A DNA stretch of 64,000 bases from Mariniblastus sp. (GTDB taxonomy: Bacteria; Planctomycetota; Planctomycetia; Pirellulales; Pirellulaceae): the NCBI GenBank assembly GCA_022447555.1, contig JAKVBF010000003.1:100279-164278 (forward strand), written 5' to 3'. This document shows, one piece after another, positions 12,227 to 42,877 of this stretch. Under the pieces are notes generated by a model. It made no database searches and was not told where the DNA came from. It worked only from the letters and a program-made list of their open reading frames with translations. How positions within the stretch are numbered: position 1 is the stretch's first letter; each line of letters begins with the position of its first letter. The position numbers and the translations under genes were made by a program.

Positions 12227-13381
12227 TTATCCAAACTTGTTTTCGATTTGGTCCAGGCTAACGCCGAACACGGTCTTTGCTGCTGCGTTGAGTGCATCTC
12301 GCTCGCCCTCTAATCGAAGAGTGCGGTGGATATGCGTGTAGCCCTCGCCAGGCCTCAACGCCAAAGCTGGACTGATTGTCTCTAATTCGAAAAACGGTCC
12401 AAGCATCCCGCCCGTTTCATTGGGTCCGTCATTATAACTATTGATGACATCTCCTGCGAAAGGGTCGTCTTGGATTTCCCAGAGGTTGTTGGTGTAACCA
12501 TTCGGTGATTTTTCGGGGAGGTTGAAGTCAACGATGGAAAGCGTCCCGCCCACCGGGTCCCAACTTCCTAGCGTCGGTTGGACCCGTTCCCGTTGGAGAC
12601 CCAGTTTACTGCGGAATTGACCATCTCCCAAAAAATAAATGAGTTCGTCTTGTTCATCAACGATCAGACGGTCAGGCCCTAGCTTTCCAAAATAGTCGGA
12701 ATTGACGATGTTACCTCGCTCTGCGGCGTTACCCGATTGATAAGGAATGACGACGGTAGCTTGTGGTGAAGGTTCGTTCATGCATAGAACCCAGATCCCG
12801 ATCAAACCGGTCTCAGGAGTCCAATTTTGATCACCTACGTTCGTCAAGCGATTATGGCTCTCGTGAGCGACGGTTTGCAAACCGCTGAGATCGATCGAAT
12901 ATCGGGCCGCCGCCGTCTCCGGATCCGGAACGATTACATTTCGATCAAATTGCATTTCAAACGTGAATCGACTGTAGTTTGTCATCCGACCACGTTTTTG
13001 AAATGAAAGACTGGACGCGGTTCGCCCGACCAGATCAAAAGGCTCGGTGTCAATTAAGGCTGGTGTTCTCCAATGCGTCAATTCCATCGGATCCTCAGGG
13101 TCGAAGAAAACCGAGAATTGGCCACCCTCGGGGCTAATCCAGAAACGGTCCTCTCCCCCATATAGATTCACCACCGGGTCCTGTTTTCCACGGGCAATCA
13201 AGTCATAGTTGATCCACCCGTAACTATTGCTGCTGGCTGGGGTCGCAGATGAGGTCATTGTTCTACCTTGGTAGGCCGGTACCACCGCGACTTGCCCACC
13301 ATGCCCGTTTTCAAGTACGATCGTCTCAACGTACTTATTTAAAAACTCAACGTCCTGCCGGAAATCATTTTGTTTCATCAA
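12227..13381 (-). CDS. DUF6786-like protein, probable sugar-mutarotase fold
   Basis: A 384-residue protein without signal peptide. Phrases such as VAVVPAYQGRTMTS, SYGWINYDLI, YGGEDRFWISPEGGQ and IDTEPFDLV match my recollection of the DUF6786 family. Its layout (substrate-facing Glu/His/Trp in a long beta-rich chain) resembles galactose-mutarotase-like folds. Function has not been established to my knowledge. It is the first gene of the five-gene run with the sulfatase and DUF1080-ThuA, which suggests handling of a released sugar. A divergent Rieske oxygenase gene begins 168 bases away, so the operon promoter should lie in 13382-13549. Confidence 0.7.
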   Translation of the reverse strand: MMKQNDFRQDVEFLNKYVETIVLENGHGGQVAVVPAYQGRTMTSSATPASSNSYGWINYDLIARGKQDPVVNLYGGEDRFWISPEGGQFSVFFDPEDPMELTHWRTPALIDTEPFDLVGRTASSLSFQKRGRMTNYSRFTFEMQFDRNVIVPDPETAAARYSIDLSGLQTVAHESHNRLTNVGDQNWTPETGLIGIWVLCMNEPSPQATVVIPYQSGNAAERGNIVNSDYFGKLGPDRLIVDEQDELIYFLGDGQFRSKLGLQRERVQPTLGSWDPVGGTLSIVDFNLPEKSPNGYTNNLWEIQDDPFAGDVINSYNDGPNETGGMLGPFFELETISPALALRPGEGYTHIHRTLRLEGERDALNAAAKTVFGVSLDQIENKFG

Positions 13382-13549: not shown

Positions 13550-14710
13550 ATGGCTACCCTCCCTCCCTCGCAGCGCTCGGCAAACGGTGACAAAGCACTT
13601 CCGAGGGACTTTGTGGTCTCTCAAGATGTGTTTGAGTTGGAAACCGAGAAGATATTCAATCAGAGCTGGCTGTATGTCTGTCGGGTCAGCGAAATTTCGG
13701 AAGCTTCCGGGTTGTATCGTTTTGAGTTGCTGAATGACCACCTATTTTTGGCGTTGGGCGAGGATGGGCAACTTCGCGCCTTTCGAAATTACTGCAGGCA
13801 TCGCGGCAGCGAATTGGTGACGCCCGAAAATTGCGAGTCGATGGGCAGCCGGATTCAGTGTCCGTATCACGCCTGGACTTATGATCGGTCTGGCAAGTTG
13901 CTTGCGGCCCCTAACATGATGGATGCGGAGGGTTTTGAATCAAGTGAATGGGGTTTAAATTCGGTCCACTGTGAGGTTTGGCACGGATTTGTGTTCGTGC
14001 ATCTAGGCAACCCCGATGATTCGCTGGCTGAATTCCTGAAGCCCTTAGCGGAACATGCGGTCGATTGGAATTTTGATCAACTTGTTGTTGCAGAGGAGTT
14101 GGTCTACACCGTTCAAGCTAATTGGAAGTTGATCTTTCAAAATTATAATGAGTGCTACCATTGTCCCTCTGTACATCCAGCTCTTAACCGTTTGACGCCC
14201 TACAAAGGGGCGACGAACGATGTTGCCAGCGGACCGATTCTGGGAGGGCCGATGAAATTAGCGGATGATTGTCAAACTATGTCCAGTGATGGAAATCGGG
14301 TGGCGAACTTCCTGCCTGGATTGAGTGATGAACAGAAAAGGATGGTGGCTTATTACACCGTATTTCCTGGCTTGTTTATCAGTCCTCATCCGGACTACGT
14401 CTTGTTGCATCGTATTGAGCGGGCTTCAACCGGTGAATCAAGGGTGGTGTGCCAGCTGTTATTCCACCCCGGTTCGATAGCAAGAACGGATTTTAATCCC
14501 ACCGCAGCTGTGGAGTTTTGGGATTTGACGAATCGACAGGATTGGAGGGTGTGTGAGTTGGCCCAACGCGGGATTGGCGATGTAACCTACGAACCCGGCC
14601 CTTACTCCAATCTAGAAAGTGTGGTCGCCGCGTTCGATCGTCATTACAGGGAGCGGATGGATCAGAACCATCAAAATCGACAGCCGATCGGCTTCCCTTG
14701 TGCCGATTAA
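13550..14710 (+). CDS. Rieske non-heme iron oxygenase, alpha-subunit type
   Basis: A 386-residue ring-hydroxylating-type oxygenase. The Rieske [2Fe-2S] ligands are C82, H84, C104 and H107 (CRH...CPYH). The catalytic iron site has N-Y-N-E-C-Y-H-C-P-S-V-H, giving H204 and H209. The third (Asp) ligand is probably in the C-terminal AAFDRHY segment. Size and motifs resemble choline/carnitine monooxygenase and phenylpropionate dioxygenase alpha subunits, so the substrate could be aromatic or a quaternary amine. No reductase or ferredoxin gene is adjacent. It is divergent from the DUF6786-like gene and converges with the small membrane gene at 14733-14930. Confidence 0.9.
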   Translation: MATLPPSQRSANGDKALPRDFVVSQDVFELETEKIFNQSWLYVCRVSEISEASGLYRFELLNDHLFLALGEDGQLRAFRNYCRHRGSELVTPENCESMGSRIQCPYHAWTYDRSGKLLAAPNMMDAEGFESSEWGLNSVHCEVWHGFVFVHLGNPDDSLAEFLKPLAEHAVDWNFDQLVVAEELVYTVQANWKLIFQNYNECYHCPSVHPALNRLTPYKGATNDVASGPILGGPMKLADDCQTMSSDGNRVANFLPGLSDEQKRMVAYYTVFPGLFISPHPDYVLLHRIERASTGESRVVCQLLFHPGSIARTDFNPTAAVEFWDLTNRQDWRVCELAQRGIGDVTYEPGPYSNLESVVAAFDRHYRERMDQNHQNRQPIGFPCAD

Positions 14711-14732
14711 TTTGAAAAACAGGTAGTGCGCT

Positions 14733-14930
14733 TCAGGGATTAAAACGATCTCCGACTGGTTTTCCGTCGGCGTCGTAACTCATTCATCCAAAATAGACAA
14801 ACGCGAAAAGGCTAATGGGAAAGGTGATGAGAAAAACCCATTCGACCGATAGGCCCAAAACAAATCCCAATAGGACCAGTCCAGCCCACAGCCACCAAGT
14901 GTCTTGCCATAAAGCCGCGTAACGTTTCAA
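14733..14930 (-). pseudogene. Small membrane protein, frame interrupted by TGA
   Basis: Not annotated by ATG-based reading because it starts with TTG at 14930, with an excellent GAGGAAGGA seven bases upstream. It encodes 48 residues (MKRYAALWQDTWWLWAGL... to ...FAFVYFG) with two hydrophobic helices, then TGA at 14784-14786. In the same frame it continues M-S-Y-D-A-D-G-K-P-V-G-D-R-F-N-P before a second TGA at 14733-14735. The segment after the first stop looks like real protein. The product may be a naturally short 48-residue protein, a recently broken gene, or a sequencing error (TGG read as TGA). It lies 69 bases downstream of the cupin gene and is probably co-transcribed with it. Confidence 0.5.
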
Positions 14931-14999
14931 GCTTAATCCTTCCTCGTTTGAATGGGCCTGAAAAACGAAACGAGTGACTTTCCGCGTCTTGGGAAAACG

Positions 15000-15359
15000 T
15001 TAGTCGAACCATTCATCTTCTGGATCAAAAGCGGGAACGGGGATGTTGATTATTCTCATTTCACCAACGGCACGATGACGGCAACCAGGTTTGATCAGGA
15101 TAGCGGATCCGGGTCCCACATCGTGAAGCTCGCCGTCCAATTCCATTTTGCCTTGCCCCTCAAGGATGTAATAGATTTCGGTCAATTGGCGGTGGTAATG
15201 TGTTTTGGCTTCTACACTAATATCCACCACGTGCAAGGAAGCTGTTTGATCCGGGTCGTCTGTGAACGCGCGTCGCGTTTTCCCGCAGGGGCAGTCAACG
15301 GGTTTTACCTGGTTCGTGTCTACAATCTGGAATCGTTTGTTGGTCATTTGGGAGTTCAT
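15000..15359 (-). CDS. Small cupin-domain protein
   Basis: A 119-residue single cupin. The first motif shows the metal-binding pattern THYHRQLTEIYYILEGQG (H-x-H-x5-E-type). The second motif PGSAILIKPGCRHRAVG gives the last His. Such small cupins include sugar epimerases/isomerases, dioxygenases and many of unknown role. No signal peptide. It is followed by the small membrane protein frame in the same direction. Its 5' side faces the DUF1559 gene across a ~308-base divergent spacer. Confidence 0.85.
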   Translation of the reverse strand: MNSQMTNKRFQIVDTNQVKPVDCPCGKTRRAFTDDPDQTASLHVVDISVEAKTHYHRQLTEIYYILEGQGKMELDGELHDVGPGSAILIKPGCRHRAVGEMRIINIPVPAFDPEDEWFD

Positions 15360-15667
15360 GTCGTGTTCTTTTAAGGGGTTGAATATCCACAGGACGGTTT
15401 TTTACCTACACGCCGCCTATAACTTTACATAAGATTAGTAGTAGTTTGATCGGCCTCTCAATTCTTTCATCCAAGTTTAACGGGTTGGAATGAGTTGGGC
15501 TACAACCTAAGTCGAAAGGTTGTTCGCGATCAGAATAAAGACTGGTGATGGAACTGGCCATTCAAGCTTTGGTATTTCGGACTCGTATCACAATTTATTT
15601 TTTATGACATGCTTCGTGATGACATGCCTTTGAATTTCAAAGACAATAAGAAAGGTTTTTTGAGATA
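15360..15667. other. Divergent intergenic region, cupin / DUF1559
   Basis: 308 bases, AT-rich toward the DUF1559 start. AAGAAAGG at about 15649-15656 is a likely ribosome binding site for the DUF1559 gene. I see no hairpin with a T-run and no clear -35/-10 pair. Confidence 0.4.
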
Positions 15668-25747: not shown

Positions 25748-26260
25748 ATGGAATATTGGCCACATCCGGCTTGCCTACCCACCAAAGTTTTGGTGGAAAG
25801 CTGTCAATTTGATCGAACTCGACGGGGGGGGCCGGGCGGGCAACACCGAAATAAGGTCGAATCGGCCGTTGTCGTGCAGCACAAGCCGAGTGGTGTTTCC
25901 GGGCAGGCTAGTGAACGCCGTAGCCAGCATGCCAATCGTGAGGTTGCCTTGGGGCGGTTAAGATTGAATTTGGCGATTCGCCTGCGCACGGACGTCGGGG
26001 ACCACGCGGAACCGAGTGAGTTGTGGAATAAACGACTCTCAGGTAATCGAATTTCGGTCGGAGTGAACCACGAGGATTTTCCGTCAATTATCGCCGAAGC
26101 ACTCGATTGGCTTGGGTATTTTAACTTTAACTTCGCACCAACAGCGAAGAAATTGAAGTGTTCCACGAGCCAGTTAATCAAGCTGCTAAAATCGAATGAT
26201 CTCGTTTTGACCTCGGTCAATCGTCTTCGTTATGAGAACCAGCAAGGCCCCCTCAAGTAA
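25748..26260 (+). CDS. Release-factor-like GGQ protein (ribosome rescue type)
   Basis: 170 residues. The RF-1-type peptidyl-hydrolase motif is clear: RRGGPGGQHRNKVESAV, with the GGQ whose Gln is methylated in release factors. The following QASERRSQHANREVALGRL is also family-typical. Domains 1, 2 and 4 of RF1/RF2, including codon recognition, are absent, as in ArfB/YaeJ and PrfH-like rescue factors. Instead of ArfB's basic tail it has a ~60-residue C-terminal region (FPSIIAEALDWLGYFNFNF then KKLKCSTSQLIKLLKSNDLV), possibly an HTH-like fold. Likely hydrolyses peptidyl-tRNA on stalled ribosomes; inference. No good Shine-Dalgarno before ATG 25748. Confidence 0.8.
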   Translation: MEYWPHPACLPTKVLVESCQFDRTRRGGPGGQHRNKVESAVVVQHKPSGVSGQASERRSQHANREVALGRLRLNLAIRLRTDVGDHAEPSELWNKRLSGNRISVGVNHEDFPSIIAEALDWLGYFNFNFAPTAKKLKCSTSQLIKLLKSNDLVLTSVNRLRYENQQGPLK

Positions 26261-39687: not shown

Positions 39688-41142
39688 TTAAGCGAGCAGT
39701 GTATCCCTTTCGGCCGGCTTGCGAGCCAAGATGGTCATGAAGTCATCGAGGGGCATGGCGTCGATCGATGAACCGGCTGAAAAGAGTTCGCCGATCTGCT
39801 GAGCTGACGCTTCGTCATACCATTGATGGGCAGCCTTTTTGAATTTTTCTACCATGATCGGAATCCCCTCTTCCCGCCGGACACGGTGCCCCACTGGGTA
39901 TTGAACCTCAATCCGATCCGTGCAGGATCCATCCTTAAAGAAGACTTGAATCGCATTACCGATCGCCCGTTTATCGAGGTCGTAATAGTCTCGGGTGAAG
40001 GATGCGTTTTCTGAAACGACCATCTTGTCGCGAATTTGATCGATTCGCGGATCCTTGGCGACATCGTCCGAGTAGTGGTCCGCCGTTAGCTGACCAAAAA
40101 TCAATCCGATGGCGGCCATGTACTGTAGGCAGTGATCTCGATCCGCGTAGTTATTCAGAGGTCCTTTTTTGTCGATGATTCTCACACCAGGCTCTTGTGT
40201 TTCCATGACGATCCGATCCACTTGCTCGAGTCGATCGGCGGTTTGAGGGTGCAGTGCAATGGCCGCTTCGACAGCCGTCTGGGCATGAAATTCTGCTGGA
40301 AAAGCGAGCTTGAAGAGGATGTTTTCCATCACATAAGCGTCTAGGGGGCGGGCGAGTGTTACCGGATTGCCACCAAAAAGAACATCTTGGAACCCCCATC
40401 TCGGAGCCGACAAAGCGGTTTCGTAGCCCATTTCCCCAGCGAGGCAGATCAAGCTCAGTCGGACAGCTCGGCCGGTCGCGTCACCGGCTGCCCAGCTTTT
40501 GCGAGATCCTGTGTTAGGGGCATGCCGGTAAGTCCTCAACGCGCCACCATCAATCCAAGCGTTCGACAGGCTATTCATGATTTGGATTCGGTCACCCCCG
40601 AGTATCTGAGTGGCCACGGCGGTGCTCGCTACTCGCACCAGGAGAACGTGATCCAGACCCACTCTGTTGAAAGAGTTATCGATTGCTAGGATACCTTGAA
40701 TCTCGTGAGCTTTTATCATCGCGGTCAATACATCTCGAACCGTGAGTGACTGTCGTTTGACACGGCTTTGGTAATCCGCAACCGCCAGAATCGCACCCAA
40801 ATTATCAGAGGGATGGCCCCATTCTGCCGCCAGCCAAGTGTCATTAAAGTCGAGCCAGCGAACCATCGTTCCGATGTCGAAGGCCGCCTTAACCGGATCC
40901 AGTTCTAGGTCGGTTCCCGGTACCCGGCAGCCCCCTTTTAGTCCCGCACCGGGAACGATAGGTCCCAGCATTTTTCGGCATTGAGGATAGGCTAGGGCTA
41001 AAAAACCACAACCCAAGCTGTCCATCAGACACCATCGGGCCGTGTCGTATGCAAGCTCGCTAGAAATTTCGTGAGATTCTACGTAGTCAGCGATGGCGGT
41101 CTGCAGGGAGTCCATGCTTGGTAATCCTTTATAGCGAGGCAT
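39688..41142 (-). CDS. prpD: 2-methylcitrate dehydratase PrpD
   Basis: 484 residues from ATG 41142, matching E. coli PrpD (483). Many PrpD blocks are present: [21 protein letters not shown]-like [71 protein letters not shown] and [20 protein letters not shown]. It dehydrates 2-methylcitrate to 2-methyl-cis-aconitate in propionyl-CoA breakdown. No prpB or prpC is in the window. It follows the thiolase in a different transcriptional order: the thiolase gene is downstream of prpD on the minus strand, separated by ~115 bases with a hairpin. Confidence 0.95.
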
Positions 41143-41214
41143 CGAAACCCTTTCGGCCTGCGACGCGTTGTGAGAAAACAATTGGATCAGAGGATGATTT
41201 GACGAAGGCTTAGC

Positions 41215-41233
41215 CAGGACCGACTCGGTCCTG
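41215..41233. other. Hairpin between prpD and thiolase genes
   Basis: CAGGACC (41215-41221) pairs with GGTCCTG (41227-41233) around five bases. No T-run on either strand, so not a standard terminator. It lies 24 bases beyond the thiolase stop codon, between that stop and the start of the neighbouring prpD gene, and could be an RNA processing or protein-binding site. Confidence 0.4.
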
Positions 41234-41256
41234 AGTGGAATCTCAGAGTGAGTATC

Positions 41257-42426
41257 TCAGGCGGCTGCGACTGCCATGGCAACGGCATTGCCGCCACCCA
41301 GGCAAAGGCTGGCGATGCCGCGGTGACCGCCGGTGCGCCGCAAAGCGTGAATTAGCGTCACTAAAACACGGGCACCGCTGGCCCCGATCGGGTGGCCCAA
41401 AGAGATTCCTCCTCCGTAAATATTGACTTTGCTTTGATCGAGTTCCAGTTCATTAAGACAGGCTACCATCTGGCTGGCAAAGGCCTCGTTGATTTCGAAA
41501 AGATCAACGTCATCCACAGTCCAACCCGCTTTTTCGATTACCCCTCGGACGGCCAGCACGGGTGCGATAAACAGGTCTTTTGGTTCTGTCCCCGAGGTAA
41601 AGTTGGCGACGATTTTGAATTTCCAGTCGGCTGATTCGGCCGTTGCTTGATCAACAACCATCACTGCCGCGGCCCCGTCACTAAGGGTTGATGCGTTACC
41701 TGCGGTGACCGTGCCTTGACGGTCGAAAACCGTACGAAGTCCTGACAGTCCTTCCAATGTTGTTTCAGCACGTGGCCCCTCATCCTCCGAAACGATGGTT
41801 TCACCACGCCGGCTTTTTACCGTGACCGGAATGATCTCATCGTCGAACGCTCCTAGTTTAATGGCTTCCACAGCGCGCTGTTGGCTCTTTAAAGCAAGTT
41901 CGTCCTGCATTTCTCTAGTGACATTAAACTTTTTTGCCGTGTGCTCAGCATGCAGACCCATGTGGCAGGCCTCAAAGGAGCAGGTCAAGCCATCGAGAAC
42001 CATTGAGTCCTGTAAGGGTGTGTCTCCGAGTTTGACTCCGGCCCGAACCCGGGCCAGGTGAGGTGTTGCCGTCATATTTTCCATCCCTCCAGCAACGATC
42101 GCTCGTGCGTCTCCGCAGCGAATCGCCTGATCGGCAAACATGATCGCTTTGAGTCCCGAGCCGCAAACTTTGTTAATGGTCACGGCCGCAATCGAGTTGG
42201 GAAGTCCCGCTTTTAATGCCGCTTGTCGGGCTGGCGCTTGGCCGACTCCAGCCGTGATGACGTTCCCCATAATGACTTCGTCGACCTGGTCTATTGGCAC
42301 GCAGGATTGCTGAATCGCGCCTTGTATGGCAACCGCTCCTAGGTCAGTTGCGGAGAGCGATTTAAAACCGCCTTGAAAGGATCCAATCGGTGTGCGTACA
42401 CCAGAAACGATGTAAGAGCTGGACAT
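41257..42426 (-). CDS. Acetyl-CoA acetyltransferase (thiolase)
   Basis: 389 residues, the standard length for degradative/biosynthetic thiolases of the AtoB/PhaA/ThlA type. Acyl-accepting Cys88 in [11 protein letters not shown]. The second active-site block is [15 protein letters not shown] (His) and the C-terminal Cys is in [13 protein letters not shown]. It interconverts two acetyl-CoA and acetoacetyl-CoA, or cleaves 3-ketoacyl-CoA. It is divergent from the acyl-CoA dehydrogenase gene, sharing the 450-base spacer, which fits joint control of acyl-CoA degradation. Confidence 0.94.
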
Positions 42427-42877
42427 AGAAAAGCCTGTTTATTTAATTGGTATTCAGTGAATTCCCCGGAGAGCATCCTAAAACAAGTATCGCAAGATGG
42501 GTATAGGACGGTGCTGTCTAAACAACGGTTGTCCATGTTTCTCGCGTCTCTCCGCGAGGTCCGTGAACTTGCCGTCTGGTAAGGAAGCAGGTCGCTAGAA
42601 ATTCTTTCCGCCGCGGCAATATGGCGGTAAGGCGCTGAGAGTGGAGGTGATTTGTCGCACGTTGCTTTGGTTGAGTTTTTGGGGATAATCATAACGTTCG
42701 TGAGATGTTTTTTTACACCCAGTGACGACAGTCTTTTATCTTTTAAATTCCGCATTCGGAATCCGCGTTCAAGGTGCTTGGGGCGATCGCCCTCGATTTG
42801 ATTCAACGTCACTCCATGTTTAAATTTTGCAGTATGCCCACAATGGATGGTTCTTAAAAGTAAAAAGGGAATAAATT
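42427..42877. other. Divergent control region, thiolase / acyl-CoA dehydrogenase
   Basis: 451 bases without a supported gene. An inverted repeat ATTCCG-4-CGGAAT sits at 42747-42762 and could be an operator. AAGGGA at 42865-42870 is a good ribosome binding site for the dehydrogenase. The minus frame 42339-42812 overlaps the thiolase start and is not protein-like. Confidence 0.45.
42747..42762. promoter_or_regulatory. Inverted repeat, possible operator
   Basis: ATTCCG and CGGAAT, 6-bp arms with a 4-base spacer, 116 bases upstream of the acyl-CoA dehydrogenase start in the divergent region. It resembles a dimeric repressor site only in form; no cognate regulator is identified. Confidence 0.3.

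What the first reader, a model, noticed from the sequence alone, without database searches (positions are those of the whole stretch)
14733..14930. Small membrane protein gene with a single in-frame TGA and coding-like continuation
Seen: a TTG start with a strong GAGGAAGGA site, 48 codons encoding two hydrophobic helices, TGA, then 16 more in-frame codons that read like protein (YDADGKPVGDRFNP) and a final TGA. Inference: either a recent nonsense mutation or read error at a Trp/other codon, or a genuine short protein, or rare TGA read-through. Because the start is TTG the gene is easily missed.
Basis: partly seen in the sequence, partly recalled or inferred. Interest (0 to 1): 0.5.

Follow-up and report, generated by a model that had tools for sequence, protein, structure and literature searches.

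The report
Conserved small membrane gene, prematurely stopped
A small, unnamed membrane-protein gene that many related bacteria keep intact is cut short by one early stop codon in this genome, most likely a recent mutation or an assembly error, so it is an ordinary broken gene, although its protein family matches no named family searched here.

Summary
It is a gene of an unnamed two-helix membrane protein, found in 27 of 28 genus genomes, own genome included, and in 84 of 396 sampled genomes of the order. In 103 other copies none stops here: all run on 10-20 residues, position 49 is always a sense codon, and Arg51 is invariant. The window copy has a stop at 49 and Ser at 51. The tail still looks protein-constrained, so the stop is young. 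Best reading: a recent truncating mutation that removes the conserved RYDxxG end. Assembly error is the main rival; no reads or second assembly of the species were available. The genome has a selenocysteine system and a hairpin follows the TGA, but no copy has Cys there, and 8-9% of the window's TGAs have as good a hairpin. Recoding is unlikely (about 3%). Interest is low.

The parts
14784..14930 (-). Small two-helix membrane protein gene, part before the first stop (48 codons, TTG start; stop TGA at 14784-14786)
   Evidence: homologues in 26 of 27 other genus genomes; helices 2-28 and 31-51 in the model of the intact nearest relative
14784..14786 (-). In-frame TGA at codon 49, where 103 of 103 other copies have a sense codon
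14736..14783 (-). Former C-terminal tail, 16 codons (MSYDADGKPVGDRFNP), homologous to the RYDxxG end of the family; Arg51, invariant in 103 of 103, is Ser here
14733..14735 (-). Second TGA, at the same place as the normal stop of the two nearest relatives (which have TAG)
14937..14945 (-). GAGGAAGGA, ribosome-binding-like site, 6 nt before the TTG
   Evidence: read directly
14752..14770 (-). Hairpin CCGAC-GGAAAACCA-GTCGG, starting 13 nt after the TGA; resembles a bacterial SECIS in outline but is not unusual for this sequence
15000..15359 (-). Upstream neighbour: cupin-domain protein, same place in both nearest relatives
13550..14710 (+). Convergent neighbour: Rieske ring-hydroxylating oxygenase alpha subunit
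12227..13381 (-). DUF6786 protein; in some other genus members it directly follows the small gene

Best explanation
This is the single copy, in one planctomycete genome, of an unnamed small membrane protein: two long helices forming a hairpin and a short conserved C-terminal turn, RYDxxG. A recent change has put a TGA stop at codon 49, near the end of the second helix. Translation should end there and yield a 48-residue protein that keeps nearly all of both helices but lacks the family's most conserved motif, so it is probably non-functional or weakened. Shown: the gene, its homology, the stop, the loss of the motif, and protein-like constraint on both sides of the stop. Inferred: that the stop is real in the organism, that translation ends there, that the helices are in the membrane, and that function is lost.
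For: 27 of 28 genus genomes have the gene (own genome included), and only the window's copy has an inside stop. In the order, 84 of 396 sampled genomes have a match and every listed match other than the window's is free of stops. In 103 other loci all copies extend 10-20 residues past position 49, position 49 is always a sense codon, and Arg51 is invariant. G000 departs at both 49 (stop) and 51 (Ser): two departures within three codons, which fits relaxed constraint after a stop better than a single misread base. Against the two nearest relatives, codons 2-48 give pS 0.70-0.72 and pN 0.12; the tail gives pN 0.13-0.16 with pS 0.41-0.87, so the tail was selected as protein for most of its history and the stop is young. 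Between the two intact relatives pN is 0.08 in the body and 0.05 in the tail, so the tail has gained relatively more changes in G000, a weak hint of relaxed constraint. TGA is an ordinary stop here: RF2 is present, and the thiolase and carboxyltransferase genes of the window, complete or nearly so by Pfam coverage, end in TGA. Gene order around it is the same in both nearest relatives.
Against: No raw reads, no second strain and no second assembly of this species could be examined, so an assembly error cannot be excluded. The 48-residue body keeps its conserved residues, which would also fit a truncated but working protein. The tail is too short (16 codons) for a strong rate test.
Confidence: 0.58

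Rival explanations
1. Sequence or assembly error: the organism has an intact 65-residue gene, and codons 49-51 are wrong in this assembly.
For: The genome is a draft of 62 contigs with 97.5% completeness. Both departures from otherwise fixed family features (stop at 49, Ser at 51) lie within three codons, and everything around them still looks functional.
Against: Relative to both nearest relatives codon 49 differs at two bases and codon 51 at one, so more than one wrong base would be needed unless the species differed there already. The frame is kept on both sides. A scan of the window listed 13 same-frame ORF pairs split by one stop (it needs 60 codons on each side and so could not see a case as short as this one); four pairs were followed up with Pfam, and the only one with hits on both sides is two separate neighbouring genes. 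The other nine pairs were not scanned with Pfam.
Confidence: 0.3
2. Working truncation: the 48-residue two-helix protein is the new functional form, and the tail is dispensable in this species.
For: The stop falls near the end of helix 2 (helix 31-51 in the model), so nearly all of the helical part is kept; the conserved body residues W12, W13, W15, P38, F44, Y46 and F47 are all kept.
Against: None of 103 other copies ends before ten residues past position 49, and Arg51 is invariant in all of them.
Confidence: 0.08
3. Recoding: UGA 49 is read through, by selenocysteine insertion or by near-cognate suppression, giving a 65-residue protein.
For: The genome has tRNA-Sec with anticodon TCA, SelB, SelD and SelA, each over its model's cut-off. 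A hairpin follows the UGA; a 41-nt stretch that I trimmed to it folds better than 197 of 200 shuffles. The tail keeps protein-like constraint.
Against: No homologue has Cys at position 49 (0 of 103), whereas PMC1088965 required at least two Cys homologues (passages read). The hairpin is ordinary: 218 of 2478 TGAs in the window score as well and 201 fold as stably, and the 54-nt stretch from UGA to the second stop has z -1.34, with 16 of 200 shuffles as good. Arg51, invariant elsewhere, is lost beside it. Position 49 is mostly hydrophobic in the family.
Confidence: 0.03
4. Stop and restart: translation ends at the TGA and restarts at the ATG directly after it, giving a 48-residue and a 16-residue peptide.
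For: TGA and ATG are adjacent.
Against: Met at position 50 is ordinary in the family (36 of 103), so the ATG was not acquired for this; the 16-residue piece would have no membrane part.
Confidence: 0.01

Closest known systems
Unnamed Pirellulales small membrane protein family (no Pfam or NCBIfam model reached its cut-off)
   Same: Same start, two helices, RDTWWLW-like first helix, Y-F-[GA] near the end of helix 2, C-terminal YD..G, length to the second stop
   Different: This copy has a stop at 49 and Ser instead of the invariant Arg at 51
   Same: 71 and 74% identity over 65 residues; same neighbours (DinB, DUF1559 pilin-like, cupin, Rieske, DUF6786, sulfatase)
   Different: Leu codon at 49 and Arg at 51; ATG start
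Bacterial selenoprotein genes (UGA followed by a SECIS hairpin)
   Same: In-frame UGA with a protein-like continuation and a hairpin, in a genome with SelA, SelB, SelD and tRNA-Sec
   Different: No Cys homologues, no redox motif seen, hairpin near chance level

Membership tests
Pirellulales two-helix RYD protein family (named here for convenience) | Homology over the whole length of about 60-70 residues | tested here: met
Pirellulales two-helix RYD protein family (named here for convenience) | Open frame through to the RYDxxG end | tested here: not met
   TGA at codon 49, 0 of 103 others; the gene belongs to the family by descent, its predicted product lacks the motif
Pirellulales two-helix RYD protein family (named here for convenience) | Arg at position 51 | tested here: not met
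   Ser here, Arg in 103 of 103
Bacterial selenoprotein | Host has SelA, SelB, SelD and tRNA-Sec | tested here: met
   each over its cut-off; of the 14 control genomes 5, 2, 2 and 1 are over the cut-off of tRNA-Sec, SelB, SelD and SelA; ARAGORN calls the tRNA SeC, anticodon tca
Bacterial selenoprotein | Homologues with Cys at the UGA position | tested here: not met
   0 of 103; criterion as stated in PMC1088965
Bacterial selenoprotein | SECIS hairpin directly downstream, beyond chance | tested here: not met
   a hairpin is there, but 218 of 2478 TGAs in the window score as well and 201 fold as stably; the distance and loop limits used in that script are recalled, not read in a paper. The trimmed 41-nt stretch alone does better (3 of 200 shuffles as good)
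Bacterial selenoprotein | Selenium-dependent full-length product | not testable with these tools
   needs protein data

The most novel reading that the evidence does not exclude
UGA 49 is decoded as selenocysteine at a position where the nearest relatives have Leu and none of 103 homologues has Cys. This would be a newborn selenoprotein not derived from a Cys protein, with the hairpin formed by changes in codons 54-58 that the two nearest relatives lack.
Probability: 0.03. Interest if true: 0.65.

Novelty: new member of a known kind. Interest (0 to 1): 0.17.

Why it matters
As a finding it is an ordinary broken gene, or a base error, in one genome. Its use is that it draws attention to a conserved protein family of about 60-70 residues that matches no Pfam or NCBIfam model at cut-off, with an invariant Arg and near-invariant Tyr, Asp and Gly at its C-terminus. 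Several other genus copies also start with TTG or GTG, so such genes may be missed by annotation. If the stop is real, one species lives with a shortened copy.

Tried and rejected
Named families: Pfam and NCBIfam gave only matches far below cut-off for the small protein, as did Pfam for 22 intact members. No solved structure by sequence; Foldseek gave two matches, at E 7.6 and 9.8, not meaningful for a helix hairpin.

Reassigned TGA: rejected. RF2 is present and window genes end in TGA.

Terminator reading of the hairpin: no terminator-like site by the consensus scan in 14600-15500.

Known selenoproteins of this genome as a yardstick for SECIS: formate dehydrogenase-like hits were below the model's cut-off and carried no inside stop, and no SelW-like match was found at E <= 0.01, so no native SECIS was available for comparison. 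Other selenoprotein families were not searched.

Independent assembly of the species: the genome-contig scan returned 23 loci, the best two at 71 and 74% identity, so none from this species; it says that records of the window's own genome may be left out.

Rows dropped before the counts: of 127 loci aligned, the genome-contig loci L037-L057 (21; copies of genomes already held, as judged from contig lengths and sequences), two repeats (L075, L078) and the window's own L002 were left out, leaving 103 loci. Four genomes (G128, G191, G219, G325) give two loci each, so 99 genomes by my count of handles. One of 28 genus genomes (G013, 82% complete) had no match.

Full report
What is there. The window lies in a 4.19 Mb draft genome of 62 contigs.

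It is a real gene. A six-frame search found it in 27 of 28 genomes of the genus (own genome included), one match each, the window's copy being the only one with an inside stop. In the order, 84 of 396 sampled genomes (own included) had a match at E <= 0.001; again only the window's copy has an inside stop among the listed matches. I collected 103 other loci after removing copies (rows dropped are told under Tried and rejected). No Pfam or NCBIfam model reaches its cut-off and no solved structure matches by sequence. A model of the intact nearest relative (22 sequences, mean pLDDT 91.4, pTM 0.68) has helices 2-28, 31-51 and a less certain 59-63. Foldseek finds nothing useful.

What the stop does. 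All 103 other copies go on for 10-20 residues past position 49. There position 49 is Phe 39, Leu 32, Tyr 13, Ile 9, Met 2, Trp 2, Ala 2, Ser 2, Val 1, His 1, never Cys and never a stop; Arg51 is 103 of 103; Tyr52 100; Asp53 98; Gly56 102. The window copy has the stop at 49 and Ser at 51, but keeps Tyr52, Asp53, Gly56 and the GDRFNP end shared with its two nearest relatives. The stop therefore removes the last turn of helix 2 and the most conserved motif of the family.

How old it is. Against the two nearest relatives the body (codons 2-48) has pS 0.70-0.72 and pN 0.12; the tail (codons 50-65) has pS 0.41 and 0.87 and pN 0.13 and 0.16. Synonymous sites of the body are near saturation while the tail protein is about as conserved as the body, so the tail was selected as protein for most of that time. 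A young stop, a base error and functional read-through all predict this; an old stop does not. Between the two intact relatives pN is 0.08 (body) and 0.05 (tail), so the tail has changed relatively more in G000; this and the replacement of an otherwise invariant Arg two codons after the stop lean towards a real lesion with relaxed constraint, but 16 codons are too few for a firm test.

Context. Both nearest relatives keep the same six neighbours (DinB, DUF1559 pilin-like, cupin, Rieske oxygenase, DUF6786, sulfatase) at 64-85% identity (the sulfatase runs off the locus ends). In L006, L009, L015 and L018 the start of the next gene lies within a few bases of the small gene's stop or overlaps it, which suggests co-translation there; Pfam names it DUF6786 in L018, the others resemble it. 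In L005 the DUF6786 start is about 100 bases away. Of 14 relatives' loci searched, 8 have DUF6786 near. In the window, its two nearest relatives and L037 the convergent Rieske gene lies between the two. A PfkB-like kinase precedes the small gene in many genus copies (Pfam tested in L018 only). This does not give a function.

Recoding. The genome carries tRNA-Sec (68.6 bits, anticodon TCA), SelB, SelD and SelA, so selenocysteine insertion had to be considered. A hairpin follows the TGA. The 41-nt stretch trimmed to it folds better than 197 of 200 shuffles (z -2.66), but the 54-nt stretch only reaches z -1.34 (16 of 200 as good); the same 54-nt stretches of the two nearest relatives show no such stability. 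Of 2478 TGAs on both strands of the window, 218 have an equally good SECIS-like stem by my script's rule and 201 fold as stably. The rule's distance and loop limits are recalled. PMC1088965 (passages read) required Cys homologues and describes a small apical loop with a guanosine; Cys homologues are absent here. PMC4807772 (passages read) reports selenoproteins in planctomycetes from a marine red alga, so the pathway itself is not new in the phylum. TGA is an ordinary stop in the window: the thiolase and carboxyltransferase genes end in it, and RF2 is present.

Verdict. A conserved small membrane gene carries a premature stop in this one genome. Probabilities: recent truncating mutation 0.58, sequence error 0.30, working truncation 0.08, recoding 0.03, restart 0.01. 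The finding is ordinary; the family has no name in the libraries searched.

Noticed in passing
G000, loci L058, L064, L152, L157 (outside the window): The genome has tRNA-Sec, SelB, SelD and SelA over their cut-offs, but no selenoprotein was found with the two families tried (formate dehydrogenase alpha, SelW-like).
   Followed up: partly
window 25796-25975, + strand: Weak match to the release factor 2 model (49 bits, positions 227-286) in a 183-residue open frame, perhaps a small release-factor-like rescue protein.
   Followed up: no
window 12227-13381 (-) and relatives L006, L009, L015, L018: A DUF6786 gene directly follows the small gene, within a few bases or overlapping, in some genus members, but is separated from it by a convergent Rieske gene in the window and its two nearest relatives.
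   Followed up: partly
window 39691-42438, - strand: Thiolase and MmgE/PrpD genes lie in the same frame separated by one TGA; Pfam covers each nearly whole, so this is two genes and not a read-through case.
   Followed up: yes
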